32,696 nt of DNA from contig PMMM01000051.1 in NCBI GenBank assembly GCA_003162245.1, positions 1 through 32,696 of the forward strand, read 5' to 3'. The notes beneath the pieces were generated by a model, which was not told where the DNA came from, made no database searches, and saw only the letters and a program-made list of their open reading frames with translations. Position numbers and translations under genes: made by a program. Source of the stretch: Phycisphaerales bacterium (GTDB taxonomy: Bacteria > Planctomycetota > Phycisphaerae > UBA1845 > Fen-1342). Positions 4,086-30,981 of the stretch are shown here, in pieces (position 1 is the first letter of the stretch; each line of letters starts with the position of its first letter).

Positions 4086-4224
4086 GCGGCGCCCTCGTGT
4101 GCCCACAAGGCACTGTACAGGTGTTCGTCCGTCGCTACCATAGCTTGTACCAGGGAGGCTCGGAAGGCGGCCCGGACGGTTTCGCCGGCTACGCCGCGGT
4201 CCGGGCGGCTCGATGGAGCCAAGG

Positions 4225-6369
4225 ATGGCCGTGCAGTCTGAACCGACAGCGCGCCGAATGGAGACGCCCAGCCTGTTTGACCCGCCGCCGGTGCGCGCGA
4301 TTCCGGTGGGGACGGTCAGTCAGCCGCTGTGGGACGCGGGGACGGACGACGAGGCCGATGAGAAGGAAAGCATAGCCACGCCCAGGGTCGCCACGGCGGC
4401 AAAAGCTGCGACCGACGAGAGAAAACCGGCGCGCACGGTGCGCGAGCGTGCTCCTGCGACGCCGAAACCGGCGCGGAAGGTGACGAAGCCGGGGCGGGCA
4501 CCGAAGGCGAAGAAGGAACGGGACCAAGAGAAGCCGGCCGTTGAAGATCGCCAGCCGGGGCACGACGTGCCGGCGACGCAAGGTGACGCGGAGCGTGCGG
4601 AGGCGGCTGAGGCGGCGGACGAGTCCGCGCCGGTGACGACGGCCGCGGAGACGAAGCGTCCGAAGCGGACGCGGACGGTGACGGCGGAGACGCTGGCGGC
4701 GCAGCAGCGCGACATCTCGGTGTCCGAGTTCTTTGCGAAGAACCGCCACCTGCTGGGGTTCGACAACAAGCGGAAGGCGCTGCTGACGACGGTCAAGGAG
4801 GCGGTGGACAACAGTCTGGACGCGTGCGAGGAAGCCGGCATCCTGCCCGAGCTGTGGATCACGATCGACCAGCTCGCCGAGGAGCGGTTTCGCGTCACGG
4901 TGCGCGACAATGGGCCGGGGATCGTGCGGGCCCAGATCCCGAACATCTTCGGGAAGCTGCTGTACGGTTCGAAGTTTCACCGCCTGAAGATGGCTCGCGG
5001 GCAGCAGGGGATCGGCATCTCCGCGGCCGGGATGTACGGGTTGCTGACGACCGGGAAGAGCGTGCACATTACGTCGCGGACGAGCCCGAAGAAGGAAGGC
5101 CACCACTTCCAGATTCAGATGGACACCGCCAAGAACAAGGCGGACGTGGTGCTGGAGGACACGGCCGACGTGCCGTGGGAACAGGGCACGGAGGTCAGCA
5201 TCGAGCTGGTCGCGAGCTTCTCGAAGGGCCGGCAGTCGGTGGACGAGTACGTCGAGCAGACGGCGATCGCGAACCCGCACGCGGTGATTCACTACATTTC
5301 GCCGGCGCCTGAGCACCGCGAGTTTCCGCGCGGGACGGAGGACTTGCCGGCCGAGACGCGCGCGATCAAGCCGCATCCGCACGGGATCGAGCTGGGCGTG
5401 CTGATGAAGATGCTCAAGGAGGCCAAGGGCGTGAAGCTGGCGGGCTTCCTGCAGCGCGAGTTCTGCCGGGTGTCGGCGAGCGGCGCCCAGGCGATTTGCG
5501 AGCAGGCGGGGTTGAGCCCGAAGTCGCCGCCGAACCAGATTGGGACGCACGAGGTCGAGAAGCTGTACGCGGCGATGCAGGGCGTGAAGTTCATGGCCCC
5601 GCCGACGGACTGTCTGGCGCCGATCGGCATGCGGAACCTGCTGGCGGGGCTGCTCAAGGAAGTGAAGGCGGAGTTCTTCACGGCGACGACGCGCGACCCG
5701 GCGGTTTATCGCGGCAATCCGTTTCAGATCGAGATTGCGCTGGCCTACGGCGGCAACCTGCCGGCCGACCAGCCCGCGCGGGTGATTCGATTCGCCAACC
5801 GCGTGCCGCTGATGTACCAGCAGTCCGCGTGTGCGGCGTACAAGAGCGTGCTGGACGTGGACTGGCGGAATTACGGGGTGTCGCAGCCGTCGGGCAGCCT
5901 GCCGGTGGGGCCGTTGGTCGTCATGGTGCACATGGCGAGCGTGTGGGTGCCGTTCACGAGCGAGAGCAAGGAGGCGATCGCGGACTACGACGAGATCCGC
6001 AAGGAGATGAAGCTCGCGCTGCAGGAGTCCGGGCGGAAGCTCAACGCGTACGTTCGCCGCCGGCGCCGGCAGCGAATGGAGAGCGAGCGGCGGAACATCT
6101 TCGGGCGCTACATCCCGGACGTGGCGGAGGCGCTGGCGAGCCTGTCGGGACAAAGCGAAGACCGGCTGCTGCGGGACCTTCAAGCGATCGCCAAACGCCG
6201 GACAGCGGAAGCCGACGTCGAGCTGGATGAGGACGGGAAGCCGATCGCGCAGGGGGACGCTGCGAACAATGGCGGGGCGACCGACGACGAGCTTGCGGGC
6301 GACGGCAGCACGGTGGTCGTGCCGGAGAACGAAGCGCCGGCCGCGCCGACGGAGTTGTTTGGGCAGTAG
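4225..6369 (+). CDS. top6B: DNA topoisomerase VI subunit B
   Basis: ATPase subunit of the type IIB topoisomerase, which with the Spo11-like A subunit passes one duplex through another. Seen (numbered from 4213): about 165 residues of Ala/Lys/Glu/Pro-rich, probably disordered N-terminal tail; then a GHKL ATPase with the Asn box (KEAVDNSLDACEEAG, from about 195), VRDNGPGI (from about 230) and GQQGIGISAAGMYG (from about 263); an H2TH-like region; and the transducer domain with the switch-lysine segment SESKEAI (about 584-588). An acidic C-terminal tail follows. Start: ATG 4225 has GGAG six bases upstream; ATG 4213 has none. Well known from archaea and plants, scattered in bacteria. No A-subunit gene lies in this window. 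Confidence 0.93.
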   Translation: MAVQSEPTARRMETPSLFDPPPVRAIPVGTVSQPLWDAGTDDEADEKESIATPRVATAAKAATDERKPARTVRERAPATPKPARKVTKPGRAPKAKKERDQEKPAVEDRQPGHDVPATQGDAERAEAAEAADESAPVTTAAETKRPKRTRTVTAETLAAQQRDISVSEFFAKNRHLLGFDNKRKALLTTVKEAVDNSLDACEEAGILPELWITIDQLAEERFRVTVRDNGPGIVRAQIPNIFGKLLYGSKFHRLKMARGQQGIGISAAGMYGLLTTGKSVHITSRTSPKKEGHHFQIQMDTAKNKADVVLEDTADVPWEQGTEVSIELVASFSKGRQSVDEYVEQTAIANPHAVIHYISPAPEHREFPRGTEDLPAETRAIKPHPHGIELGVLMKMLKEAKGVKLAGFLQREFCRVSASGAQAICEQAGLSPKSPPNQIGTHEVEKLYAAMQGVKFMAPPTDCLAPIGMRNLLAGLLKEVKAEFFTATTRDPAVYRGNPFQIEIALAYGGNLPADQPARVIRFANRVPLMYQQSACAAYKSVLDVDWRNYGVSQPSGSLPVGPLVVMVHMASVWVPFTSESKEAIADYDEIRKEMKLALQESGRKLNAYVRRRRRQRMESERRNIFGRYIPDVAEALASLSGQSEDRLLRDLQAIAKRRTAEADVELDEDGKPIAQGDAANNGGATDDELAGDGSTVVVPENEAPAAPTELFGQ

Positions 6370-6425: not shown

Positions 6426-8348
6426 ATGAAGCTTTTCGTCCCGGGGCGTATCTGCCTGTTTGGCGAGCATTCGGACTGGGCGGGCGCGCACCGGCGCACG
6501 AACGCGGAGCTCGGCAAGGGCTACACGATCCTCTGCGGCACGAACCAGGGCCTGTACGCCGAGGTTAAGGCGCATCCGTCCAAGCTCATCGTGCGGGCGA
6601 CACTGGACGACGGCCGCACCGAGGGGCCGCGCGAGCTGCCGATGCAGCGCGAGGCGCTGCTGGCGGAGGCCGAGACGGGCGGGTTCTTCTCGTACGCCGC
6701 CGGCGTCGCGTACCAGGTGCTGACGCAGTACCGGGTGGGCGGGCTGGAGATCGACAACTACCGGACGACGCTGCCGATCAAGAAGGGGTTGTCGTCGTCG
6801 GCGGCGATCTGCGTGCTGGTGGCGCGGGCGTTCAATCGCGTGTACGACCTGAAGCTGACGACCCGCGGGGAGATGGAGTACGCGTACCTGGGCGAGATCA
6901 CTACGCCGTCGCGGTGCGGGCGGATGGACCAGGGGTGCGCGTACGGGGACCGGCCGATCCTGATGACGTTTGACGGCGACCGGATCGACATCGCAGAGCT
7001 GAAGGTGCCGCGCGACCTGCACCTGGTGATCGTCGACCTGCACGCCGGCAAGGACACGAAGGAGATTCTCGCCCGGCTCAACGGCTGCTATCCGTTCGCC
7101 GAGAATGATCTGCACCGCGCCGTGCAGGAGTACCTCGGCCCGATCAACGGCCGGATTGTGCAGGCGGCGGCCGGCGCGATCCGCGCGGGCGACGCGGAAC
7201 AGGTCGGCTACCTGATGACGGAAGCGCAGCGCGAATTCGACGCCCACCTGCGGCCGGCGTGTCCCGCGCAGCTCACCGCGCCCGTGCTGCACAAAGTCCT
7301 TGCGTATGAGCCGATTCGACCCTTCATCCTCGGCGGCAAGGGCGTCGGCTCGCAGGGCGACGGTTCGGCGCAGTTCGTGGTCAAAGACTCCGCCGCCCAG
7401 CAGAAAGTGATCGAGATTCTCGAACGCGACCTGGGCTTGACCGGGCTGACACTCACCATCGCCGCGGCGCGGCGGGTGCGCAAGGCGGTCATTCCCGCGG
7501 CGGGGTTCGGGACGCGGCTGTTTCCGGCCAGCAAGGCGATGAAGAAAGAGCTGTTCCCGATCGTCGGGCGCGACGGCCGCGCCAAGCCCGTGATTCTCGC
7601 GATCATCGAAGAGGCGCTCGCGGCCGGCATCGAGGAGATCTGCATCATCATTCAGCCGCAGGACCGGCCGTACTTCGAGGAGTTCTTCGGGATGCCGCCA
7701 CCGGTCGAGCTACTCCACAAGCTGTCGCGCGAAGACCAACAGTACGTGCAGTACCTGTTGGACGTGGCCCGGCGGATCACCTGGGTGCCGCAGTCGAGCC
7801 AGGAGGGCTTCGGACACGCGGTTTACTGCGCCCGCGCGTGGGTTGGCGACGAGCCGTTCCTGCTGATGCTCGGTGACCACCTGTATGCGTCGGACAACGA
7901 CGTGCCGTGCGCCCGGCAACTGCTCGACGTCTTCGAGCGCGTTGGACACAGCGTGGTCGGGTTGAAGGTCACGCCCGTGGAGGAGATACACAACTTCGGC
8001 TGTGTCGGCGGAACGTGGGTCGAGCCCGGTTCGTTGCTCGCGATCACCGAGTTCTACGAGAAGCCCGACGCCGCGTACGCGCGCGAGCACCTGCACGTCG
8101 ACGGGATGGACGACGGGCAATTCCTGACAGTTTTCGGGCAATACGTGCTCACGCCGCAGGTTTTTCAGTACCTCGACGAGCACATCGCGCACAACGTGCG
8201 GGAGCGTGGCGAGTTTCAGTTGACGTCGTGCCTGGAGCACCTGCGGCAAGAGGACGGCGTCGCGGGTTACGTCGTGAAGGGTCGCCGCTTCGACATCGGC
8301 CTGCCCGATGCGTACCGGCAGGCGATGATCGACTTTCGGACCGCGTAG
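6426..8348 (+). CDS. GHMP sugar kinase fused to GalU-like nucleotidyltransferase
   Basis: A 640-residue two-domain enzyme. Residues 1 to about 350 form a GHMP kinase: N-terminal PGRICLFGEHSDWAG resembles the galactokinase/mevalonate-kinase substrate motif, GLSSSAA at about 121-127 is the phosphate-binding loop, and GGKGVGSQGDGSA near 310 is the third motif. Residues 353-640 form a nucleotidyltransferase with AAGFGTRLFPASK...KELFPI at its start, GDHLY at the metal site and a GEFQLT...KGRRFDIG end, all as in UTP-glucose-1-phosphate uridylyltransferase. The fusion would convert a free sugar to sugar-1-phosphate and then to an NDP-sugar, a salvage logic like FKP (fucokinase/GDP-fucose pyrophosphorylase) but in reverse domain order. 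The sugar and nucleotide are not evident from sequence. It follows top6B by 56 bases and may share its transcript. Confidence 0.88.
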   Translation: MKLFVPGRICLFGEHSDWAGAHRRTNAELGKGYTILCGTNQGLYAEVKAHPSKLIVRATLDDGRTEGPRELPMQREALLAEAETGGFFSYAAGVAYQVLTQYRVGGLEIDNYRTTLPIKKGLSSSAAICVLVARAFNRVYDLKLTTRGEMEYAYLGEITTPSRCGRMDQGCAYGDRPILMTFDGDRIDIAELKVPRDLHLVIVDLHAGKDTKEILARLNGCYPFAENDLHRAVQEYLGPINGRIVQAAAGAIRAGDAEQVGYLMTEAQREFDAHLRPACPAQLTAPVLHKVLAYEPIRPFILGGKGVGSQGDGSAQFVVKDSAAQQKVIEILERDLGLTGLTLTIAAARRVRKAVIPAAGFGTRLFPASKAMKKELFPIVGRDGRAKPVILAIIEEALAAGIEEICIIIQPQDRPYFEEFFGMPPPVELLHKLSREDQQYVQYLLDVARRITWVPQSSQEGFGHAVYCARAWVGDEPFLLMLGDHLYASDNDVPCARQLLDVFERVGHSVVGLKVTPVEEIHNFGCVGGTWVEPGSLLAITEFYEKPDAAYAREHLHVDGMDDGQFLTVFGQYVLTPQVFQYLDEHIAHNVRERGEFQLTSCLEHLRQEDGVAGYVVKGRRFDIGLPDAYRQAMIDFRTA

Positions 8349-8627: not shown

Positions 8628-9716
8628 ATGAGAACGGGATTGATGATCGTCCTGGTAAGCGTGGTCCTCGTGGTGCCGGCGCTCGCTCAGCCCGAGTCAC
8701 GCCCCAGCCGACCGGAGCGTGCCGGGGGTCCGCCGGGGCGCGGTGCCGGCGGCGGGGCCATGTTCGCGTCGCCGCTCGATGTCGCGCACCGGCTGGCCGA
8801 GACCCTGAGCCTGACGGACGAGCAGCGGACGAAGTACGACGCGCTGATCGAGAAATTCCGGCCGCGGTTCGACGAACAGGCGAAGCAGTCCGAGAAGGCG
8901 CAGGAGCTCATGCGTCAGAGGCGCGACGCCCAGCAGAGCGGCGACGACGCCAAGGTCGAGGAAATCCGGCAGCAGATGGAGGAGATGCGCGCGGCCAGCC
9001 AGCCGCTGCTCAACGACTTCTTCAAAGAGGTCAAAACGCTCCTGACGCCCGAGCAGGTCGTCAAGCTCGACGACTTCCGCGACCGGATGGAACGCGTCCG
9101 CGGCGGCGCGGGCGGTATCGAGCAGCTCATTCAGCGGCTGCCGGAGGGCTTGCAGCTTACGGATGAGCAGCGGGCCAAGTACGAGAAACTGACGACCGAG
9201 TTCCGCGCGCAGCAGCAGGAACTCCTACCGTTGGTACAGGAAATGCGGAAGGCCCGGCAGGAGGGGAACGAGGCGCGGGCCACCGAGCTGGAGAAGCAGA
9301 TCCGGGACAAGCGCGGCGACGACGGCGGCGCGGGCAAGTTCCTGGACCAGGTCGAGCCGATCCTCACGGATGAGCAGAAGGCCAAGCTGCCGGAGCTGTG
9401 GGCCAAGTACACGGGCGGCGGCCCCGAAGATGTGCGCACCGTGCTCCAGGCCGCGTTGCGCCTGGAGCTCAACGCCGACCAGCAGAAGCGTCTGCGCGAG
9501 ATCGCGCGCGACGCGATGCGGGCCAGCCGCGGCGAGGCGACACCGGAGAAGCGGGCCGAGCAGTTCAAGACGACCAAGAGTCAGGTGGTGGCCCTGCTCG
9601 ACGCCAAACAGGCGGCCGAGCTCGAGCGGCTGCTCGAAAGCCGGCAGCGCCCGGACCGCGGTGCGCGCCGCGCGCCCGGAGAGGGTCCGGGCCAGCCCCC
9701 GCCAGGGAGACCGTAA
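8628..9716 (+). CDS. secreted LTxxQ-repeat protein (Spy/CpxP-like)
   Basis: A 362-residue exported, charged, helical protein. Seen: a Sec signal peptide (residues 1-20, hydrophobic core IVLVSVVLVV, cleavage after ALA), then at least three copies of the LTxxQ-type helix motif: LSLTDEQRTKYDAL, LQLTDEQRAKYEKL and LELNADQQKRLREI. Weaker copies appear as LTPEQVVKLDDF, LTDEQKAKLPEL and LLDAKQAAELERL. This motif is the signature of Spy/CpxP periplasmic chaperones and metal-sensing relatives such as CnrX/ZraP, so a periplasmic chaperone or stress role is plausible but not shown. The C-terminus is Arg/Pro/Gly-rich. The start has AAGGAG seven bases upstream. It converges with another LTxxQ protein. Confidence 0.8.
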   Translation: MRTGLMIVLVSVVLVVPALAQPESRPSRPERAGGPPGRGAGGGAMFASPLDVAHRLAETLSLTDEQRTKYDALIEKFRPRFDEQAKQSEKAQELMRQRRDAQQSGDDAKVEEIRQQMEEMRAASQPLLNDFFKEVKTLLTPEQVVKLDDFRDRMERVRGGAGGIEQLIQRLPEGLQLTDEQRAKYEKLTTEFRAQQQELLPLVQEMRKARQEGNEARATELEKQIRDKRGDDGGAGKFLDQVEPILTDEQKAKLPELWAKYTGGGPEDVRTVLQAALRLELNADQQKRLREIARDAMRASRGEATPEKRAEQFKTTKSQVVALLDAKQAAELERLLESRQRPDRGARRAPGEGPGQPPPGRP

Positions 9717-9831: not shown

Positions 9832-10767
9832 TTACTGGCCGGTGGACGAAGCCGTTCCCGTTGCCGTCACCGTCTCCGTCTCGGGCTGCTCCATCTGGTC
9901 CAGAATCGCCAGTTGCTCCGGCGTGAGGATTGCGCGGAACTCGTCGCGGGCCTGCTGATGACGGGCCTGGACGGCGGTGCGCAGATCCGTGCGAATCTGC
10001 TCGATCTGCGTCTGCTGGTCGGCGGTCAACTGTAACTGAGCCACCAAGTACTGCGAGAATGGCTCCGATCCGCCGCCGCGCATGCCCAGCTCGCGGCCAT
10101 GCATCCCGAAGCGGTGCGGCGGCGGCATGAGCGGGCCGGAAGGTCCGGATGCGCCCGACGCTCCTGTGGCCCCGGCCGGCTGCGGAAAGAGCTGATTGAG
10201 CTGCGCCTGCTGCGCGGGGGTCAGCACCGCGAGAATCTTGTCGTGGGCGTCTTGCCGTAGCGTCTGAAGGTCGTCGTGCAACCGCTGGGAGATGTCCTGG
10301 GCCTGCTGCACCTGTGCGTCAGTCAGGTTGAGCGGATCAGCGGCCGCGAACCCCGGCGGTTGCGCGAACGGCCCGCCGCAGAAACCGAACCCGCCGAACG
10401 CGGCGTTGGGGTCGCCGTTCCCGATGATGCCGTCGACCTGCGTCGCGAATGCCTGCTGCGTGATCTGGCCGTTGTCCAGTTGGGCCTGCAAGCCCTCGAG
10501 CTGTTGCTGCTGGTCGGACGTCAACTGGACCGGCGCTGCCGCCGTGGAGACCGACCCGAGCTGGTTGGCGTACTGCTGGAACCCGGCCACGAGGTCGCTA
10601 ACGGTCAACTGGTTGAGCGCCGGCACTTGCGCCGCGGTCTGCGCCAACTGCGTGAGCGCCTGGGCGATGGACTGATTCGGGTCCACGTTTCCGGCGCAAC
10701 CACTCACAGCGAGGACGAGCAGACCCCCGGTGAACAATGCCGTCAGGGTTCGGATCTTCCAGATCAT
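9832..10767 (-). CDS. lipoprotein with LTxxQ repeats
   Basis: A 311-residue predicted lipoprotein. Seen: signal peptide with lipobox VSGC, modified Cys at residue 24; a Gln-rich helical body with LTxxQ motifs (QLTSDQQQQLEGL, NLTDAQVQQAQDI, LTPAQQAQL, QLTADQQTQIEQI, LTPEQLAIL). A Gly/Phe/Pro-rich stretch near 115-140 and a Pro/Ser/His-rich linker near 195-230 separate the helical units. The paired pattern LTxxQ...helix...LTPxQ repeats twice. Family resemblance is to Spy/CpxP-like proteins, membrane-anchored here. Shine-Dalgarno GGAGG (minus, 10779-10775) is seven bases before the ATG. Upstream, TATATA near 10872 is a possible -10. It converges with the other LTxxQ gene. Confidence 0.78.
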   Translation of the reverse strand: MIWKIRTLTALFTGGLLVLAVSGCAGNVDPNQSIAQALTQLAQTAAQVPALNQLTVSDLVAGFQQYANQLGSVSTAAAPVQLTSDQQQQLEGLQAQLDNGQITQQAFATQVDGIIGNGDPNAAFGGFGFCGGPFAQPPGFAAADPLNLTDAQVQQAQDISQRLHDDLQTLRQDAHDKILAVLTPAQQAQLNQLFPQPAGATGASGASGPSGPLMPPPHRFGMHGRELGMRGGGSEPFSQYLVAQLQLTADQQTQIEQIRTDLRTAVQARHQQARDEFRAILTPEQLAILDQMEQPETETVTATGTASSTGQ

Positions 10768-11050: not shown

Positions 11051-14000
11051 CTACCCCGCCGTCTTGCGCTCGATGCACTGCCGGACGTGCGCGAGCCAAT
11101 CCCGGTCGAGCGCTCCGTACGGCCGGAATTTCTCCAGCAAGCCGCGCTCTTCACTGAAGAATAGCGCCCTGTAGAGACCCAGCCGGTTGGCTTCCGGCGA
11201 GTCGATGAGGTTGCTCGAGTCCGCCGCGCTCATCTGGAACAGCACCCGGTTGTCGAACTCCCGCTGCGTCTGGCGGTCCAGCGTGCGTTCGAGCGTGGCG
11301 AGCGTGTCGGACCAGACGAGGACGTGCAGACCCAGGGCCGGGCCCTCGCGCAGTACTTCGACAAACTGCCGATCGGTCGCGGGCGCGGCGTCCGCGTCGG
11401 ACGCAGAGAAACTGAAGGTCTCTTCGCGACGCCGCAACACCCGGTAGCGCTGCAAGCCGTAGATCAGGATGTACACGGCGGGCGCATCCTCGGGGCCTTC
11501 CGCCAGGCGCCGCTGGGTTTCGGCCGCGAGGGCCGCGAGCGCGTCGGGCACTTCGCGCCAGTCCACCCACTGGACCGCGTGCGGCAGAAGGGCGACCATG
11601 TCCTGCAATCCGCCGGGCGCGGGGCTGCCGGCGGCCGCGCCGCCGAGGATCACGAAGCGGGCGGTGCCGGGGGCGTGTTGGCTGCCCAGGCAGAGCATGG
11701 CGGCGGCGAGCATCGCGAGGGCGGCGTCGTCACGCTGCCCGACGAAGAGGAGGTTGGCGCCGCTCTGCCGGCGAAAAGCCACGCCGGTCGGGTCCTTGAT
11801 CGCGACCGGTTCGCCGAGCCAGGCGTACGGGGCCGCGACGGACGTTGGCCAGCGGGGCGTCTCGATCAGGCGGGCGAGCAGTCGATTCTGTTGCATGTCG
11901 GCGGGTGCGTTGCCCTCGAAGACGATCGCCGGCTCGCCGCGCCACTCCCGGGCGACGGCCAGCGCGTGGACTTCGTCCAGGTAGGCGCTCTGACGTTCGT
12001 CGGGGAGCCAGGCGACCTGGAAGCTGTTGTTGCCGGCGACGAGGCCGCCGGCATCGTTGTAGATCGCGTCGCCGGGGCGTGAGAGCAGGCGGGCGGCGAC
12101 GTTCGTGTCGTCGAGAATCAGTTGCGAGTCCGCCTCCGAGCACTGGAGTGCGATACGGACCGCCATCTGCCCCATCGTGCTGCGCGCCAGGCCGGCGGTG
12201 CCGGCGAGCGTCTGCGAGCCCAGGAGCACGTGAATGCCGAACGCGCGGCCCTGTCGGACGAGGCGGTCGAGCAGGATCGCCGCGTCCTGCGCGAGCTTGT
12301 CGTCCTCGGTGAAGAAGACCTGGAACTCGTCGACGATGAGCAGCGTGCGCGGCAGCCCCTGGCCGGTGGCCGCGCGGTACGCGGGCAGGTCCTGGACGCC
12401 GGCGGCGCGGAACAGGTCGCCGCGGCGGGTCATTTCCGCGTCGAGGCGTTGCAAGACGCTCACGCCGAACTCGCGGTCGCTCTCGATCGCGATGGCGCGG
12501 GCGTGCGGGAGGGCGTGCGCGACGTAGGTCTTGAACTCCACGCCCTTCTTGAAGTCGACCAGGTACAGCTCGACCTCCTCCGGACGGTACGAGAGCGCCA
12601 GGTTCGTGATGATCACGTGCAGCAGCGTGGATTTTCCGGAGCCCGTTTTCCCGGCGACCAGCACGTGCTGCGCGAGACCCCGTCCCAGGCGGAAATGCTG
12701 GAGCCGCACCGCGCCGGCCAGCCCGATCGGGATGGTCAGCTCCGTGGCGGCGTCGCGCGTCCAGCGCTGATCCGCACGCGGCACGATGTTGTCGAAGGGC
12801 ACTTCGACGCGCAGCGCGTCCTTCGCGCCGCGCCCCACCACCTGCATGATGCGGGTCAGAACCTCTTCCGGCGGGGGCACGTCCAGCGTCAACGGGAACT
12901 GGCGGAGCAGCTCGTCCTGGGCGACGAACCGCTCGCCGTCGTGCACGAGGTGCAGGCTCCCACCCGCCAGGTCCTCCAGGGGCAACTCGACGGGCAGACT
13001 AAGCCGGTTGTCGTGCATGATGAGCGTGAAGACGCCGCAGCGCGCACCGCTGCTGATAATGCTGCTCAGCCGGCGGGCGGCGCCCTCGGTGAAGTTGGTG
13101 GGGAAATCCGCCACGACGAGGAAGCGATAGGGCTCCGCGAGCTGGCCGGCCTGCCGGTTGTAGGCGTCGATCGTCGCAAACTCGTTGCGAAGGTATTTCT
13201 GGATGACGTTTTCCATGTGGCTGGTCAGCTCGGTGAGCCGGGCTTCGATCTGCTCGCTGTCGGTCCAGATGCGTCCGCCGACGAGCGCTTCCTCGTAATC
13301 GACCAGGTGCATGAAGCCCGCGAAGCTCTCGCCCAGCCCGACGGGGTCGATGATCGTGAAGCGCACGCGCCCCGGGGGCAGCGCGGTCAGCAGACGCAGC
13401 ATGACCACGCGCAACGTGTCGATGGCCTGCGATCGCCCGGCGCGCTCCGTCTGCAACAGGAGCGAGCACCGTCCCGGTACCGCCAGCAGCGCCGGCGTCG
13501 CCGCGGCCGGCGGCCGCTCGTCCAGAAACCCCGCCAGCGCACGCACGCTGGCCGCGAGCTGCGTCAAATCCACGCCCCAGCGGCCAAACGCGATGAGCGC
13601 GGCGAACTCGTCGGCGGACGACGGCTTCTCCAACTCACCGCTCTCCCAGCGCGCACCGGTCGGGATACGGAGTTGGTCGCCCGCCGCGAGGAAGCGCTGG
13701 ATGCGCTCCAGGCCCGCTTGCCAGGCGGTGCGCTGCGCCGCTCGCTCGGCCTCGTACTGCGCGCGGCTCGCATCCATGCCCTGCCGATGCGCCTTGCGGA
13801 CGGTCGCCAAACCATGCTCGTGCCGCTCCCGCAGGTGGCGGCGCCGTTTCTCGATCTGCGCGGACAACTCCCGCAGCGCGACCGCGCGGCGGTGCTCGAT
13901 CTCGGCCCGCTGCTGCTGGTCGACCTCCTGGAGCCTGGCACGTGCTTCGGCGTCGCGCCGCTCGACTTCAGCCAGCAGCCCTTCGAAATGCCGCCGGACG

Positions 14001-15070
14001 GCCGCCTTCTCGGAGTTGTGCCGATCGGCGCCGGTCGCCCGGGGCCCCTGCCGCTGATAGCGTTCCTGCGCGAGGGCCAGATGGTGGTCCAGCGCCCGCC
14101 CGCCAGCCGCCACGGCCCGTGCGAGCGGCCCATAGAGCGTCTGGATGCGGGCCTGTCCGCTGTGCCGGATCACCCAACCGATGAACAGCGAGACCAACCC
14201 AGTTACCGCCAGCGCGACCGGCCCGCTCACGGCGAACGGCGGCGCGCCAGGCAGATCGAAACGGCTGAGCGCCCACGCGCCGCCGACCGCCAGGGCGCTG
14301 AGCAGCGTGGGCCACACGTACAGCCGCGCGCCGCCGAGCAGGCGCGGGCCCCACAGGCGCTCGATGGCGTTCAGGTGCTCGAGCGCAATCTGCGCCTGGT
14401 GGTAGTACGCGGCCCAAGCGTCGCCCGGCGGCGCGCTCGGTTTCGGTGGCGCCGCGCCGGCCGGCGGGATGCTGATGCCGTACCGGCTCAGCACGGACTG
14501 CGCACGTCCGTGGAGTGCGTCCAGACGCCGGCGGCCATCGGTCACTTGTTGCTCGACGGCCCCGAACTCGCGCTCCATGCGTTCGTGGTCGGCCTGGGCA
14601 ACCGTGTCCGCCAGCAACAGCTTGTCTTCCATCTGGCGGTCAAGCTCGGCTTCCGTCTCGTGTGCTTGCGCGGCGATGCGCTCCAGCGCGGCCCGCGTCT
14701 TGTCCGCGTGCTCCGCCCGGAGCGCGGCGTAATCGGCTTCGATCCGCGCCGTCTGCTCGGCCTGGGTCTTCTCCGCCGCGGCCAGCTTCTCGTTCAGCAC
14801 CGCCTCGGTCTCGCCGAGCGCCGCATGCAGCGTTTGCTCGGCGGATTCGCAGGCGTGCCGGTAGCGTTCCTCGATGCCCGACTCGGTCGGCGTGACCGCG
14901 ACGGCCGACAGCGTGAGCAGCTCGTGCAGCCCGGCCCGCTGTAGTTCCAGGAAACCCACCCCCGCATCGGTGCTCACCGGCGCTGCGTTAAGGTCGGATC
15001 GGTCCGGCATCGCGTCTGGCGACTCCGTACGCACACCCACTTTCGCCGGCTTGCCCGGGTTGATCGGCAT
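11051..15070 (-). CDS. FtsK/SpoIIIE-type ATPase, type VII-like (EccC-like)
   Basis: A 1339-residue membrane ATPase, the motor candidate of this locus. Seen in order: N-terminal coiled coil (about 60-200, Glu/Ala/Arg-rich), two membrane segments (about 248-268 and 280-302), a second coiled coil (about 340-465), a degenerate first ATPase-like domain (about 480-760, no P-loop), a canonical FtsK domain with Walker A GKTGSGKST (about 806-813) and Walker B TLLIVDEFQ (about 909-917), and a degenerate third domain in which the P-loop position reads VGQRDDAAL. EccC of type VII secretion also carries three FtsK-like domains. The long coiled coils replace the EccC N-terminus. It starts five bases after the stop of the 70-aa WXG-like gene, so the four genes 11051-16664 form one operon. 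Confidence 0.85.
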   Translation of the reverse strand: MPINPGKPAKVGVRTESPDAMPDRSDLNAAPVSTDAGVGFLELQRAGLHELLTLSAVAVTPTESGIEERYRHACESAEQTLHAALGETEAVLNEKLAAAEKTQAEQTARIEADYAALRAEHADKTRAALERIAAQAHETEAELDRQMEDKLLLADTVAQADHERMEREFGAVEQQVTDGRRRLDALHGRAQSVLSRYGISIPPAGAAPPKPSAPPGDAWAAYYHQAQIALEHLNAIERLWGPRLLGGARLYVWPTLLSALAVGGAWALSRFDLPGAPPFAVSGPVALAVTGLVSLFIGWVIRHSGQARIQTLYGPLARAVAAGGRALDHHLALAQERYQRQGPRATGADRHNSEKAAVRRHFEGLLAEVERRDAEARARLQEVDQQQRAEIEHRRAVALRELSAQIEKRRRHLRERHEHGLATVRKAHRQGMDASRAQYEAERAAQRTAWQAGLERIQRFLAAGDQLRIPTGARWESGELEKPSSADEFAALIAFGRWGVDLTQLAASVRALAGFLDERPPAAATPALLAVPGRCSLLLQTERAGRSQAIDTLRVVMLRLLTALPPGRVRFTIIDPVGLGESFAGFMHLVDYEEALVGGRIWTDSEQIEARLTELTSHMENVIQKYLRNEFATIDAYNRQAGQLAEPYRFLVVADFPTNFTEGAARRLSSIISSGARCGVFTLIMHDNRLSLPVELPLEDLAGGSLHLVHDGERFVAQDELLRQFPLTLDVPPPEEVLTRIMQVVGRGAKDALRVEVPFDNIVPRADQRWTRDAATELTIPIGLAGAVRLQHFRLGRGLAQHVLVAGKTGSGKSTLLHVIITNLALSYRPEEVELYLVDFKKGVEFKTYVAHALPHARAIAIESDREFGVSVLQRLDAEMTRRGDLFRAAGVQDLPAYRAATGQGLPRTLLIVDEFQVFFTEDDKLAQDAAILLDRLVRQGRAFGIHVLLGSQTLAGTAGLARSTMGQMAVRIALQCSEADSQLILDDTNVAARLLSRPGDAIYNDAGGLVAGNNSFQVAWLPDERQSAYLDEVHALAVAREWRGEPAIVFEGNAPADMQQNRLLARLIETPRWPTSVAAPYAWLGEPVAIKDPTGVAFRRQSGANLLFVGQRDDAALAMLAAAMLCLGSQHAPGTARFVILGGAAAGSPAPGGLQDMVALLPHAVQWVDWREVPDALAALAAETQRRLAEGPEDAPAVYILIYGLQRYRVLRRREETFSFSASDADAAPATDRQFVEVLREGPALGLHVLVWSDTLATLERTLDRQTQREFDNRVLFQMSAADSSNLIDSPEANRLGLYRALFFSEERGLLEKFRPYGALDRDWLAHVRQCIERKTAG

Positions 15071-15074
15071 GGGC

Positions 15075-15287
15075 TCATTCGCAGTCGTGGCGCACTTCCT
15101 GTAGCACGACCGTCATGTGGGCCAGCAGCAACTCCACCTTGCGCACGCGGGCGAGCAGCGGCGTGACGTAGGTTTCCTCGAACCGGCGGGCGTTCTCGTC
15201 GTGCCAGGCGGCCCGCGCCTCGTCCCACTGTGCCCGCAGGTCCTTCGCCGCCTGCTTCAGCTTGCCGAGTCCGGCACCCGTGCTCAT
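15075..15287 (-). CDS. 70-aa WXG-like helical protein
   Basis: A small helical protein in the type VII-like operon. Seen: two predicted helices around W28-x-D30, in the context AWHDENARRFEETYV. This shares the pattern W-x-D-x3-R-x-F-x-E with the first gene of the operon (TWRDQEQRKFTEEF), so the two are probably distant paralogues of the WXG100/Esx fold with Asp in place of Gly. The start was taken at the ATG at 15287 (MSTGAGLGKL); a longer frame would begin inside the end of the upstream gene. It may be a secreted substrate or a pairing partner; this is inferred from position and motif. Confidence 0.7.
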   Translation of the reverse strand: MSTGAGLGKLKQAAKDLRAQWDEARAAWHDENARRFEETYVTPLLARVRKVELLLAHMTVVLQEVRHDCE

Positions 15288-15329: not shown

Positions 15330-16382
15330 TCACGACGGCCCGACGTTCGCGGCGGACCAGAGCCGCTTGTTCTCCGCGTCGAACACCGCCTCCAACCTGG
15401 CTCCGTCCAGGACGACCAGGCAACCGGGCGGCAACTCCAGCAGCGACGCGAGATCGGGTCGCGCCGCGAGCATATCCGCCACACGCACCGCGTCATACCC
15501 CGGCGGCGCAACGTTGTCCACGCTCCCGATATACCAGCCGCTGTCCCCGGCGCCGCACCCGGCCAGACGCTCCAGGTAGATTCGCGCCGGCTGCCCGGCG
15601 CCGCGGGCCACCACGAGGCGATCTTCGGCCGCGATCGGCACGCGCGCGAGTCCCAGCCGTGCGAACTCCGCGGGCCAGGTTGGCACCGAACCGTCCGCAC
15701 GCCGCCAACCGGCGTCCAATTCCGCCCGCGGAGCCGCGTCCCGCACGGCCGCCGGCGGCGTCTGCGCGCGCAAGCGCCGGTAGGCCTCGACGTCCGCTGG
15801 CGCGGGCGGAGCCGCACGGGCCATCGAGCTAAACTCGGCGCCGGCGCCTGGCTCCGCACCCAGCCCCGCCGCTGACGAGACGCTCTGCGCCGGCGGCGTC
15901 GGGGTATCGGCGTACGCCTCCAGCGCCGTCAGCATGTTGTCCAGTTGTGCCAGGGCGTTGGGTATGTCCGCGGCCAGGGCCTCGCTGAGCCCGCCGGCGA
16001 CGGCCAGATACGAGTAGGTTTCCTCGTCCAGCCGGCGGCTCCAGCGGCGAACGTTGGCCATCTTCCGCCGGGCCTCCTCCACGCGGCGTGTCGCCAGCGC
16101 CACTTCCTGCTCTTCCTCGACGCACGACGGCCGGCCGCCGAGCGCGGTCGGCTGCAGCTTCTTGCGCGTGAGCGCGCTCTTGGCCCGCGTCAGCAACTCG
16201 GCCCGTCGCTCCCCTTCCCGCTTCCAGTAACTGCTCTGCTCCGCTTTGACCCAGGTGTTGGTGCGCTGCAACTCCGCCTCGGCCTCGTCCAGACCCGCGC
16301 CCGCCGTCTCCGCGAACCGGCACATCGCCGTCCGCAGCCGCTTAAGGGCCTGGAAGGACTCGATCGAGGCGTATCCGCCCAT
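15330..16382 (-). CDS. helical type VII-locus protein with Imm33/DUF2185-like C-terminus
   Basis: A 350-residue protein in three parts. Residues 1-160: long charged helices with tryptophans (TNTWVKAEQ, SSYWKREGERR), resembling LXG/WXG-type helical modules. Residues about 165-225: Ala/Pro-rich linker. Residues about 235-350: a compact domain containing DSGWYIGSVDN (near 280), a spaced P-D-x-x-S-L-L segment and LEAVFDAEN near the end. This pattern (ER...DSGW...P-x-L-xx-LL-x-xPxG) resembles the Imm33/DUF2185 immunity family as I remember it. If correct, an immunity-like domain is covalently joined to a secretion-type helical domain. It sits between two WXG-like genes and ahead of the ATPase, 10 bases after the first gene. 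Confidence 0.65.
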   Translation of the reverse strand: MGGYASIESFQALKRLRTAMCRFAETAGAGLDEAEAELQRTNTWVKAEQSSYWKREGERRAELLTRAKSALTRKKLQPTALGGRPSCVEEEQEVALATRRVEEARRKMANVRRWSRRLDEETYSYLAVAGGLSEALAADIPNALAQLDNMLTALEAYADTPTPPAQSVSSAAGLGAEPGAGAEFSSMARAAPPAPADVEAYRRLRAQTPPAAVRDAAPRAELDAGWRRADGSVPTWPAEFARLGLARVPIAAEDRLVVARGAGQPARIYLERLAGCGAGDSGWYIGSVDNVAPPGYDAVRVADMLAARPDLASLLELPPGCLVVLDGARLEAVFDAENKRLWSAANVGPS

Positions 16383-16391
16383 GCGCGCTCC

Positions 16392-16664
16392 CTAGTGTTG
16401 CTGGAGGTAGTCCTCGATGTGGCCGGCCCGCTGTTGGAGGAAGCCGACGTGCCGGTCCGCCGCCTCGGTGAACCGCGCCAGCGTCTTGATGGTCTGCTCG
16501 AACTCTTCGGTGAATTTCCGCTGCTCCTGGTCGCGCCAGGTCTTCTCCAGCTCCCTCATGCGCGAGTTGAGGCCGCTCATCAGGGCCTGGAGATCGTGGC
16601 TGAAACGCGCCAGCTCGCGCGCGAAGCGACGCAATTCCGCAGGATCGACGTGCGCCTTGGGCAT
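16392..16664 (-). CDS. WXG100-family protein
   Basis: A 90-residue two-helix protein of WXG100/Esx size. Seen: helix 1 (about 8-40), turn with W43-R-D45, helix 2 (about 46-88). The turn has Asp in place of the usual Gly, a known variation. No clear YxxxD/E export signal is present at the C-terminus (it ends HIEDYLQQH). The start at ATG 16664 is supported by GGAGG five bases upstream; the frame extends further but that part is Pro/Gly-rich and unlike the family. First gene of the operon leading to the FtsK-like ATPase; presumably a homodimer or a partner of the 70-aa paralogue. Confidence 0.82.
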   Translation of the reverse strand: MPKAHVDPAELRRFARELARFSHDLQALMSGLNSRMRELEKTWRDQEQRKFTEEFEQTIKTLARFTEAADRHVGFLQQRAGHIEDYLQQH

Positions 16665-17426: not shown

Positions 17427-18068
17427 ATGATCGTCACGCTCGATGCCCGACGTCTGGACATGTCCTTCGACCCGAACTGCACCCTCGAGACGCTCATCGA
17501 GCAGGTGCGGGCGGCGCATGATCGCCGTCTGATCGTCTCGGTTGCGGTGGACGGCCGGCCGCTGACCGAAGACGACTTGCAGCAGGCCCTGGGCGAGCCG
17601 CTGGGGGCCGACACGCAGGTCGATCTGCAGACCGGCGATGCCCGCGCGCTCGTCGGCGACGCACTGCGCGCGCTGGCCCGGCAGTTCGAGGAGGCCAGCC
17701 GGCAACACGCCGGGCTCGCGGAGCGGCTGACCACGGGCGACTCCGGCGAGGCGCTGCGGGAGATCGGGGCGCACATGACGCTGTGGCAGACGTGCCACCA
17801 GGCGCTGATTCAGTGCAGCGGGCTGCTGCACGACAGCCTGGCCGGCTATCGGCACGAGGGCCGCAGCGTCCAGGAGTGGTCCGAAGACGTGATCGGCAAG
17901 CTGGTCGAGATCCGCGGGGCGCTCGAGGCGCGCGACCTCGTGCTGCTATCCGACCTCATCCGCTACGAGCTGCCGCCGCTGTGCGAGACGTGGCACGGGC
18001 TGCTCGACGGCCTCGCCGAGCAAGTGCGGTCCGGGGCGGCGTGCGGAACAACCGCCGAGACGGCATGA
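17427..18068 (+). CDS. unknown protein with possible beta-grasp N-terminus
   Basis: A 213-residue soluble protein I do not recognise. Residues 1-72 alternate strands and one helix (MIVTLDARRL / TLETLIEQVRAAH / RLIVSVAVDGRPL / ADTQVDLQTGD), a layout compatible with a ubiquitin-like beta-grasp fold. Residues 73-200 are helical with clustered Trp, His and Cys (LWQTCHQALIQCSGLL). Type VII systems often include a ubiquitin-like component (YukD/EsaB), and this gene lies next to a type VII-like operon, though on the other strand and with a DUF962 gene between, so a link is speculative. GGAG lies nine bases before the ATG. The stop is followed within 20 bases by a small hairpin. Confidence 0.65.
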   Translation: MIVTLDARRLDMSFDPNCTLETLIEQVRAAHDRRLIVSVAVDGRPLTEDDLQQALGEPLGADTQVDLQTGDARALVGDALRALARQFEEASRQHAGLAERLTTGDSGEALREIGAHMTLWQTCHQALIQCSGLLHDSLAGYRHEGRSVQEWSEDVIGKLVEIRGALEARDLVLLSDLIRYELPPLCETWHGLLDGLAEQVRSGAACGTTAETA

Positions 18069-18869: not shown

Positions 18870-20126
18870 ATGCCCTACGACCCCTTGCAGGACGTGAAGT
18901 CCGTAATCCGCCACGCCGAGTGCGAGACCCGCCGCCTCCACCACGCCTGTCTCGACACCCCGCACATCCTGCTTGGCGTCTGGCGACGCCGCGAATTCGG
19001 CAAGATCGCCCTCGCTGCGTTCGGCGTCCGAGAGCGTGCCCTGCGCACCGCAGCCTCCCGGCACATCGCGGCCGTTCCCCCCGACCCGCCCGCGCCCGCC
19101 GCCCCGCAATTCGGACAGACCCTGCCGCTTACCGCTCGCGCCGCTCATCTGTTGCAGGCCGTGGCTGAGTTCGCCGATCAACATGAACGCGACGCCGTCT
19201 TTGAAACCGACCTTCTGTACGTCGGCGCCGGCGCGCCGGAGTATGGCCTCGTGCCGATTCTCGCGGATCTTGCCGTCGAGGTGCAGCAACTGCGCTGGGA
19301 ACTGCGCCCGTCCGACGCTCCACAGTACGGCACCCCACACCTCGACGCGTTTTTCAAGTCATACCTCCGCGGCCCGCTCGGCTGGTGGCGCCGCCTGTTT
19401 AGCTACCACTACAGCGACGCGCGTATCCCGCGTCGTAGCGTCGAGCCTCGCCCAACGGACCCCCGCATGCTGCTGCTGAACATCGCCGACCAGACCCTCC
19501 GCCGCGAGGAAAGCGAGTTCACCATCTCCGCCGCGGACTTCCCCGCCTGGGTGAACGACGAAGTCCGTCAAACGCCCGGTTTCGATCCGCAGGCCGGATT
19601 CCGCGGCGTGCTCGACCTCCTGACAGAGCACAAGTACAGCTTCCGCTTCGGCGGCCTCGTCCACGACTGGCCCGATCCGGCCACCTGCCGCGGCGGCAAG
19701 GTGTTCGGCCGGAAGGAGGGCGAGATCATACACATCCGCGTCGCCGACCGTCGAACGCACGCGATCGCCCCGGCCCAGGACGACCCCTGTCTCCTGGTCT
19801 ACGACATCGCGGAGACCGTCCGCCAACATGGCAAGTGGCCGGAAACGATCACTCGCGCGCAGCTTCGCGATTACCTGCCCGCCCAGCTAGTTCAACACCC
19901 CGAATTCGACGCCGACGCGTGCTTCGACGCGCTGATCGCGCAACTCGACCAGCCGCAGGACTGGAAGCGCCTGGCCGGCCCGATTTGCTGCTGCGGCCGT
20001 CCGCCGCTCTGGGTCTATACCGACGGCCGCCAAATCCACGTCGCCCGCTGGCTCGCCCCCTGGACCCAGCGACAACTCCTCCGCTCCGGCCGCCGCAAAC
20101 GCGATGCCACGCTGCGCACCGACTAG
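18870..20126 (+). CDS. Clp-N-domain protein without AAA+ ATPase
   Basis: A 418-residue protein. Residues 1 to about 150 look like a double Clp N-terminal repeat: an H-A-E...R-x-x-x-x-x-C-LDTPHILLGVW segment (about 14-38) and a second LTARAAHLLQAVAEFADQHERDAVFETDLLYVG segment (about 85-118). These match the ClpA/B/C N-domain consensus (helix...xTxHLLLGL). No Walker A or B motif follows; instead about 270 residues of unrecognised sequence with two similar parts (DEVRQTPGFDPQAGFRGVLDLL and AQLVQHPEFDADACFDALIAQL), suggesting an internal duplication of roughly 100 residues. It may be a substrate-recognition or adaptor protein; this is inference. It stands alone in its direction between repeat-rich spacers. 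Confidence 0.65.
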   Translation: MPYDPLQDVKSVIRHAECETRRLHHACLDTPHILLGVWRRREFGKIALAAFGVRERALRTAASRHIAAVPPDPPAPAAPQFGQTLPLTARAAHLLQAVAEFADQHERDAVFETDLLYVGAGAPEYGLVPILADLAVEVQQLRWELRPSDAPQYGTPHLDAFFKSYLRGPLGWWRRLFSYHYSDARIPRRSVEPRPTDPRMLLLNIADQTLRREESEFTISAADFPAWVNDEVRQTPGFDPQAGFRGVLDLLTEHKYSFRFGGLVHDWPDPATCRGGKVFGRKEGEIIHIRVADRRTHAIAPAQDDPCLLVYDIAETVRQHGKWPETITRAQLRDYLPAQLVQHPEFDADACFDALIAQLDQPQDWKRLAGPICCCGRPPLWVYTDGRQIHVARWLAPWTQRQLLRSGRRKRDATLRTD

Positions 20127-29481: not shown

Positions 29482-30945
29482 TCAACCCCCCTGCATCTCG
29501 AGCACGACCTCCGCGAGCGCGCCGGGGATCTGCTGCGCCTCATCCGCTTCGAGCGTACGCACGTCGAACAGCAGCGCCTCGTCGTGGATCCGGCAGATAA
29601 TCGGCACCTCACGCTGCCGCAGCTCCGCGGCAACCGTCGCCGCCCGCAGCTTGGCCAGCCGCACGACCACGACCCAGGTCGGGAACGGATACGTCGGCAG
29701 CGAGCCGCCGCCGGCCTCCGAAACGTCCGGCCGGGCCGACACCTCGGCTTCGGGCGCCGCCGCGGTGATCTCGCCGGCCAAGGCCCGCGCCGCCGCCGCC
29801 AACGCCGCCGGCGTCCGCGACAACATGCGATACGCGGGGATGCGGCGGACAATCGCCTCCGGATCGCGATAGATGCGCAGCGTCGCTTCCAGCGCCGCCA
29901 GCGTCAGCTTGCCCGGACGCAATGCGCGGGCCAGCGGATTGCGGCGTAGAGCGGCGATCAGGTCCGCGCGGCCGACGACGATGCCGGCCTGCGGCCCTCC
30001 AAGCAACTTATCGCCGCTGAAAAGCGTCAGGTCCGCGCCAGCGGTGACGCTGGCCCGCACGCCGGGCTCGTCCCACGCCCGCGGTCCGACGGCGCCAGCC
30101 GGCACGCCCTCGTCCGCGGGCCACGGCACGTCGTCCGTCAGCAAGCCGCTGCCGAGGTCGTCGACGACGACCAGGTTGTTACGCCGCGCGAGCGCGACCA
30201 GCTCGGCGAGCGACGCGCTCTCGGTGAACCCCTGGATGCGGTAGTTGCTCGTGTGCGCCCGCAGCAGGACGCTCGTGTTCTCGTTGATGGCCCGTTCGTA
30301 GTCGCTGATGCGCGTCCGGTTCGTCGTGCCGACCTCGACCATCCGGCAATTCGCCGCCGTCATGATGTCCGGCAGGCGGTACGACCCGCCGATCTCGATG
30401 AGCTGCCCGCGCGAGATGACGACTTCACGCCCCGCCGCCAGCGTGTTCAGCACCAGGAACGTCGCCGCGGCGTTGTTGTTCACGACTACCGCATCCGCCG
30501 CCCCGCACAACTCGCGCAGCAAGTCGCGCAGATGATCGTGCCGGCTGCCGCGCTGACCGGTCACGAGATCAAACTCCAAATTGCAGTAGCGGGCGGCCGT
30601 CTCGACGATGGCGTCGATCGCTTCCTCCGCCAGCGGCGCGCGCCCCAGGTTCGTGTGCAGCACGATGCCGGTCGCGTTGATCACCTTCCGCAAACGCGGC
30701 CGGCTGCGCTCGTACAAATGCTGCCGGATCGCGAGCGCCAGCGACGGGAGGTCAATGGCGGCGGACTGGCCGGCTAGCAGCGCCGCCCGGCGGTCCTCCA
30801 GCACCGCGCGTACGGCGAGAAGCACTTCGCCGCGGGGATGGTCTTCGGAGAGGTTGACGATGGCCGGCTGCTTCAGCACGTGGTCGACCGACGGCAGCTC
30901 GCGCAACGCCGCCGGCGCCGGGTTTTCGGGTGCGGGCGTGTCCAT
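29482..30945 (-). CDS. selA: L-seryl-tRNA(Sec) selenium transferase
   Basis: PLP enzyme that converts seryl-tRNA(Sec) to selenocysteyl-tRNA(Sec). Seen: N-terminal RELPSVDHVLKQP; VINATGIVLHTNLGRAPLAEEA; NNNAAATFLVLNTLAAGREVVISRGQLIEIGGSYRLPDIM; VVDDLGSGLL; and the PLP lysine in FSGDKLLGGPQAG (about 308). Length about 487 residues, as for bacterial SelA. The C-terminus ends IICRIHDEALLFDVRTL. Start: ATG 30945 is placed seven bases after a TATCAT/TTGCGC promoter; an ATG at 30954 would overlap that -10. No selB, selD or tRNA-Sec is visible in this window. Confidence 0.94.
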   Translation of the reverse strand: MDTPAPENPAPAALRELPSVDHVLKQPAIVNLSEDHPRGEVLLAVRAVLEDRRAALLAGQSAAIDLPSLALAIRQHLYERSRPRLRKVINATGIVLHTNLGRAPLAEEAIDAIVETAARYCNLEFDLVTGQRGSRHDHLRDLLRELCGAADAVVVNNNAAATFLVLNTLAAGREVVISRGQLIEIGGSYRLPDIMTAANCRMVEVGTTNRTRISDYERAINENTSVLLRAHTSNYRIQGFTESASLAELVALARRNNLVVVDDLGSGLLTDDVPWPADEGVPAGAVGPRAWDEPGVRASVTAGADLTLFSGDKLLGGPQAGIVVGRADLIAALRRNPLARALRPGKLTLAALEATLRIYRDPEAIVRRIPAYRMLSRTPAALAAAARALAGEITAAAPEAEVSARPDVSEAGGGSLPTYPFPTWVVVVRLAKLRAATVAAELRQREVPIICRIHDEALLFDVRTLEADEAQQIPGALAEVVLEMQGG

Positions 30946-30952
30946 ACGCGGC

Positions 30953-30981
30953 ATGATACGAGCGCCGTGCCGCCAGCGCAA
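30953..30981 (-). promoter_or_regulatory. candidate selA promoter, leaderless
   Basis: On the minus strand TTGCGC (30981-30976), 17-base spacer, TATCAT (30958-30953), then seven bases to the ATG at 30945. No Shine-Dalgarno, so mRNA likely begins at or near the start codon. Confidence 0.45.

What the first reader, a model, noticed from the sequence alone, without database searches (positions are those of the whole stretch)
15330..16382. Secretion-type helical module fused to an Imm33/DUF2185-like domain
The C-terminal 115 residues contain DSGWYIGSVDN and a late P-D-x-x-S-L-L/PPG pattern that I associate with the Imm33 (DUF2185) immunity family. Immunity proteins are usually separate from the toxins or substrates they counter; here the domain is joined through an Ala/Pro linker to long WXG/LXG-like helices and lies between two WXG-like genes and an FtsK ATPase. 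Seen: domain layout and motif. Inferred: family assignment and any immunity role. It may be a structural or adaptor use of the fold.
Basis: partly seen in the sequence, partly recalled or inferred. Interest (0 to 1): 0.62.

Follow-up and report, generated by a model that had tools for sequence, protein, structure and literature searches.

The report
Planctomycete secretion component with borrowed immunity domain
The gene sits inside a compact four-gene cassette found across planctomycete bacteria that looks like a stripped-down type VII (WXG100/EccC-ATPase) protein export system. In one class of the phylum the cassette's long coiled-coil protein carries an extra domain borrowed from an immunity-protein family, apparently reused as an optional part of the machine rather than as an antidote.

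Summary
The 350-aa ORF (15330-16382, minus) has a confidently predicted two-helix hairpin (residues 7-76 and 88-159), a disordered Ala/Pro linker and a C-terminal domain matching Pfam PF24719 "Imm33-like" (E 1.6e-11). That is a sister family of PF09951 Imm33/DUF2185; the window protein itself has no PF09951 hit. The gene lies in a tight operon: WXG100, this gene, small WxD protein, EccC/EssC-like FtsK ATPase. The cassette recurs in dozens of planctomycetes with unconserved flanks. In a 392-genome phylum sample the WXG100 and the hairpin gene each occur once per genome (60 genomes each, 59 shared), including six where they are unlinked. The hairpin is the fixed part. The Imm33-like domain is optional: 35 of 73 complete copies lack it, the FtsK tree needs 11 state changes (at least 7 forced), and among sampled loci it occurs only in the window's class. 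Its divergence tracks FtsK, so it was mostly inherited with the cassette and repeatedly lost. No toxin partner, toxin swapping or positive selection was seen. Immunity is unsupported; a dedicated secretion component with a repurposed Imm33-like module fits best. Nearest described system: the H. pylori HP0062/HP0066 WXG-FtsK pair.

The parts
16392..16664 (-). gene 1: WXG100 protein (90 aa, WRD in place of WXG)
   Evidence: PF06013 E 8e-10; profile A5 matches H. pylori HP0062 (3fx7) E 1.5e-12 and EsxA/EsxB structures; only PF06013 hit in the genome
15330..16382 (-). gene 2: 350-aa hairpin protein with Imm33-like C-terminal domain (the finding)
   Evidence: starts 9 nt after gene 1 stops
16155..16364 (-). 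gene 2 helix 1 (residues 7-76), with conserved W44 and W53
   Evidence: AlphaFold2 pLDDT about 98; conservation
15906..16121 (-). gene 2 helix 2 (residues 88-159), ending in Y157, invariant in the alignments
15678..15905 (-). gene 2 Ala/Pro linker, mostly disordered, with two short helices (residues 160-235)
   Evidence: pLDDT under 50 at 169-190
15348..15677 (-). gene 2 Imm33-like domain (residues 236-345)
   Evidence: PF24719 residues 242-334, E 1.6e-11; predicted alone at pLDDT 86, pTM 0.79
15534..15545 (-). DSGW motif (residues 280-283)
15423..15434 (-). LPPG motif (residues 317-320)
15075..15287 (-). gene 3: small W-x-D helical protein (70 aa; true start at the internal ATG)
   Evidence: 57 homologues at the same place in other cassettes; W-x-D and C-terminal DC conserved
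11051..15070 (-). gene 4: EccC/EssC-like FtsK/SpoIIIE ATPase (1339 aa) with two likely TM helices and an intact Walker A in one ATPase domain
   Evidence: PF01580 E 1.5e-32; TIGR03924 EccCa E 1.7e-33, EssC 3e-29, DNA translocase FtsK only 2.5e-10; TM helices and Walker A GKTGSGKST read by eye

Best explanation
Gene 2 encodes a dedicated, single-copy component of a minimal type VII-like (WXG100/EccC) export module of planctomycetes. Its conserved part is the N-terminal helical hairpin, which most likely bundles with the two small WXG-type proteins encoded on either side and brings them, or is itself brought, to the membrane EccC-like ATPase of gene 4. The Imm33-like domain on the flexible linker is an accessory protein-binding module recruited from the Imm33 superfamily in the window's class, inherited with the cassette and lost many times; it probably tunes what the complex docks to or carries and does not neutralise a toxin. 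Shown by computation: operon, hairpin, family match, co-occurrence, optional C-terminus, co-inheritance. Inferred: the complex, secretion itself, and the binding role of the C-terminal domain.
For: Four-gene order conserved with genes touching or overlapping, while flanking genes are not shared. WXG100 and hairpin gene: 60 genomes each of 392, one copy each, 59 shared, six of these unlinked. ATPase matches EccC/EssC far better than DNA translocase FtsK. WXG100 profile hits HP0062 and EsxA/B structures. Optional domain: 35 short and 38 long forms, 11 changes on the FtsK tree, at least 7 forced by starred branches. Domain divergence follows FtsK divergence (Mantel r 0.64, p 5e-4, non-redundant set). 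Purifying selection in all three parts of gene 2 (dN/dS 0.17, 0.23, 0.42).
Against: No interaction, secretion or localisation data. No multimer prediction was possible. Other T7SS parts (YukC, YukD) are absent from this genome, so the export channel is unknown. The hairpin matches only generic coiled coils in the PDB. The C-terminal dN/dS rests on one pair of genomes.
Confidence: 0.6

Rival explanations
1. Gene 2 is itself the main secreted substrate: an LXG- or PPE-like protein whose hairpin pairs with two small WXG-type partners (as LXG-Lap1-Lap2) and whose C-terminal Imm33-like domain or acidic tail is the cargo delivered outside.
For: Same layout as LXG toxins with two small helical targeting factors that resemble WXG100 (PMC9600955); an invariant Tyr at the end of helix 2, where T7SS export motifs lie; disordered tail after the hairpin.
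Against: C-terminal ends are not polymorphic: only one domain or a disordered tail. One copy per genome. No YxxxD/E after the Tyr (by eye). No LXG Pfam match.
Confidence: 0.22
2. The Imm33-like domain is a working immunity domain, protecting the cell from a toxin that passes through or is met by this system.
For: PF24719 is related to Imm33, which sits in polymorphic toxin immunity loci (PMC3482391); weaker constraint on the C-terminal part (dN/dS 0.42).
Against: No toxin gene recurs beside the cassette and none was recognised among the window genes scanned; about half of the cassettes lack the domain; immunity proteins are usually separate genes.
Confidence: 0.08
3. The cassette is not an exporter: the FtsK-like ATPase and coiled-coil proteins act on DNA or the envelope, for example in chromosome or division functions.
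For: The hairpin resembles SMC-like and other generic coiled coils; single copy per genome; no other T7SS genes found.
Against: EccC/EssC models score far better than DNA-translocase FtsK; WXG100 homology to EsxA, EsxB and HP0062.
Confidence: 0.1

Closest known systems
Helicobacter pylori HP0062 / HP0066 (WXG100 + FtsK, called a minimal type VII set in PMC4978471)
   Same: WXG100 with WRD in the turn, clustered with an FtsK/SpoIIIE protein in a diderm (PMC3397514); our WXG100 profile hits HP0062 at E 1.5e-12.
   Different: Whether HP0063-HP0065 match gene 2 or gene 3 could not be tested; an Imm33-like domain is not reported there.
T7SSb LXG-Lap1-Lap2 presecretion complex (PMC9600955)
   Same: Long helical N-terminal domain, flexible link, folded C-terminal domain, two small WXG100-like partners, EssC ATPase.
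   Different: LXG proteins carry variable toxins and occur in many versions; here there is one copy and one domain or a tail. No LXG, YukC or YukD match.
Mycobacterial T7SSa PE/PPE and Esx with EccC
   Same: Helical hairpin substrates and an EccC-type ATPase (TIGR03924 E 1.7e-33, below the curated cut-off).
   Different: EccB search was inconclusive; other ESX genes were not searched. The ATPase scores far below the equivalog cut-off.
Imm33 (PF09951) and Imm33-like (PF24719) domains
   Same: PF24719 match above the cut-off; shared DSGW and LPxG.
   Different: Here the domain is fused to a secretion-cassette component, not part of an immunity locus.

Membership tests
PF24719 Imm33-like domain | Pfam model score above the curated cut-off | tested here: met
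   44.4 bits against 27, residues 242-334; 27 of 34 long orthologues match at E up to 0.01, none of the short ones
PF09951 Imm33/DUF2185 | Pfam model match | tested here: not met
   no hit for the window protein or in its genome; one orthologue at E 0.0067; the families are related by hhalign
Polymorphic-toxin immunity protein | partner toxin gene next to it | tested here: not met
   no shared flanking gene in 81 loci beyond the four cassette genes
Polymorphic-toxin immunity protein | neutralises a toxin | not testable with these tools
   needs a bench assay
Type VII secretion system (WXG100 + EccC/EssC) | WXG100 substrate gene linked to an FtsK/SpoIIIE-type EccC/EssC ATPase | tested here: met
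   EccC/EssC scores lie under the equivalog cut-offs
T7SSb | EssB/YukC and YukD present | tested here: not met
   no match in the genome, while the B. subtilis control rings
T7SSa | EccB present | tested here: inconclusive
   no match, but no control rang either
LXG effector | PF04740 LXG domain | tested here: not met
   no hit in the genome, B. subtilis control rings
LXG effector | variable C-terminal toxin domains | tested here: not met
   only the Imm33-like domain or a disordered tail
Type VII secretion system (WXG100 + EccC/EssC) | proteins are exported | not testable with these tools
   needs a secretome experiment

The most novel reading that the evidence does not exclude
Planctomycetes carry their own minimal, single-copy type VII-like exporter built of four proteins, whose third helical subunit is a family without a Pfam name, and in which an immunity-derived domain has become a working, optional part of the secretion complex, for example a docking or gating module.
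Probability: 0.45. Interest if true: 0.68.

Novelty: new variant of a known kind. Interest (0 to 1): 0.52.

Why it matters
WXG100/EccC export is studied almost only in Gram-positive bacteria and mycobacteria. A small, single-copy, widely kept four-gene version in a diderm phylum gives a natural minimal system in which to ask what is essential. The Imm33-like fusion would be a clear case of an immunity fold being built into a secretion machine, and its many natural losses provide ready comparisons between cassettes with and without it.

Tried and rejected
PF09951 as the family: no hit for the window protein. PDB fold search of the whole model: only generic coiled coils. PDB fold search of the C-terminal domain alone: no match with Foldseek E up to 0.001 and best Z 3.1, so the fold of the domain could not be tied to a solved protein; this does not show that the fold is new. 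PDB sequence searches with the C-terminal and hairpin profiles gave only weak, unrelated hits. NCBIfam had no family for genes 2 and 3. PADLOC: no defence-system call for gene 2; ATPase hits are generic P-loop matches. Plasmid search: no relatives. Literature searches for WXG100/T7SS with planctomycetes found no paper describing this cassette in the held library.

Full report
What was checked. The ORF at 15330-16382 (minus) encodes 350 aa. Pfam gives PF24719 Imm33-like at residues 242-334, E 1.6e-11, above the curated cut-off. PF09951 (Imm33/DUF2185) gives nothing for this protein or in its genome. The two families are related: four standalone planctomycete proteins hit both models, and a profile of the C-terminal domain aligns with standalone Imm33 proteins over DSGW and LPxG (hhalign P 1.8e-6, probability 90%), while the N-terminal profile does not. 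That comparison used only six Imm33 sequences.

Anatomy. AlphaFold2 with 64 sequences gives mean pLDDT 89: helix 7-76, helix 88-159, low confidence at 169-190, and an alpha/beta domain from about 236. pTM is 0.49, as expected for two parts on a flexible link. The C-terminal domain alone is predicted at pLDDT 86, pTM 0.79. The hairpin has conserved W44 and W53, and a Tyr at 157 that is invariant in the alignments, at the end of helix 2. The hairpin helices are about 70 residues each, longer than those of a WXG100 protein.

Operon. On the minus strand the order is WXG100 (16392-16664), gene 2, a small protein with a W-x-D motif (15075-15287) and a 1339-aa ATPase (11051-15070). The ATPase is best described by EccC and EssC models (E 1.7e-33 and 3e-29), well ahead of DNA translocase FtsK (2.5e-10), though all lie below the equivalog cut-offs. 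Its closest solved relatives are an FtsK/SpoIIIE protein (4nh0) and EccC5. The WXG100 profile matches HP0062 of H. pylori at E 1.5e-12 and EsxB/EsxA structures. HP0062 has WRD in its turn and an FtsK/SpoIIIE neighbour (PMC3397514), and HP0062 and HP0066 are called a minimal type VII set in PMC4978471. The window WXG100 and most of its relatives also have WRD.

Distribution. A genome-collection scan anchored on the WXG100 gave 471 relatives; the best 80 loci, nearly all planctomycete, were kept. Clustering of their ORFs and the window gave four shared genes, in 81, 75, 65 and 57 of 81 loci, and no other gene in more than 10. Some absences are contig ends or gene-calling losses. Gaps between cassette genes are small, often the 4-base ATGA overlap. 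In a sample of 392 genomes of the phylum, the WXG100 occurs in 60 and the hairpin in 60, always once, and 59 genomes have both. In six of these the two genes are far apart or on different contigs, yet both are kept. This is the strongest evidence that the hairpin protein is a partner in the system and not a passenger.

The Imm33-like domain is optional. Of 73 complete gene 2 copies, 35 are short (176-241 aa, ending in a Pro-rich or acidic tail) and 38 long, the window included. Many short forms end in the 4-base overlap with the next gene, so they are not frameshifted long forms. On an FtsK tree of 56 rows the state changes at least 11 times, 7 of them forced by well-supported branches. The short L032 lies between the long window pair and the long L033 with full support. 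Among 27 long forms the domain's divergence follows that of FtsK (Mantel r 0.54; 0.64 on a non-redundant 16; p 5e-4). So the domain was mostly inherited with the cassette and lost repeatedly, although some transfers cannot be excluded. In 30 loci of the phylum sample only four carry it, all in the window's class, so it was probably gained inside that class. The tree was unrooted and built with the quick method; gain and loss are inferred from this distribution.

Immunity. Imm33 sits in polymorphic toxin loci (PMC3482391), but here no toxin gene recurs nearby, none was recognised among the window genes scanned, C-terminal ends are not swapped, there is one copy per genome, and selection between the window and its congener L034 is purifying in all parts: dN/dS 0.17 hairpin, 0.23 linker, 0.42 C-terminal domain, and 0.03 for the WXG100. 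The C-terminal domain is therefore less constrained but still maintained.

Mechanism. By analogy with LXG-Lap1-Lap2 complexes (PMC9600955) and PE/PPE pairs, I infer that the hairpin packs with the two small partners and that this bundle is what the ATPase recognises. The Imm33-like domain, hung on a flexible linker, is then a docking, regulatory or cargo module. None of these steps is shown. YukC, YukD and LXG are absent from this genome with working controls; EccB is undecided. How the proteins would cross two membranes is unknown.

Verdict. The finding is real and a little different from what was first read: not an immunity protein fused to a substrate by accident, but an optional Imm33-superfamily module on a fixed component of a minimal type VII-like cassette. 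It is a new variant of a known kind.

Noticed in passing
4213-6369 (+): Topoisomerase VI B subunit (PF09239, E 9e-60) in a bacterial genome; its A subunit was not looked for.
   Followed up: no
6426-8348 (+): One ORF joins a GHMP kinase domain and a nucleotidyltransferase domain, possibly a bifunctional sugar kinase / nucleotidyltransferase.
   Followed up: no
17427-18068 (+): 213-aa ORF on the opposite strand, upstream of the WXG100 gene, without a clear Pfam family (weak FCD match only).
   Followed up: no
18870-20126 (+): 418-aa ORF with a weak Clp N-terminal match just under the cut-off.
   Followed up: no
8628-9716 (+) and 9832-10767 (-): Two neighbouring LTXXQ / metal-resistance-like proteins on opposite strands.
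   Followed up: no
29482-30981 (-): SelA selenocysteine synthase (E 9e-136), which suggests that the organism may use selenocysteine.
   Followed up: no
genomes G320, G397, G149, G380, G427, G480: The WXG100 and the hairpin gene are unlinked but both kept in single copy; where their ATPase and third gene lie was not checked.
   Followed up: partly
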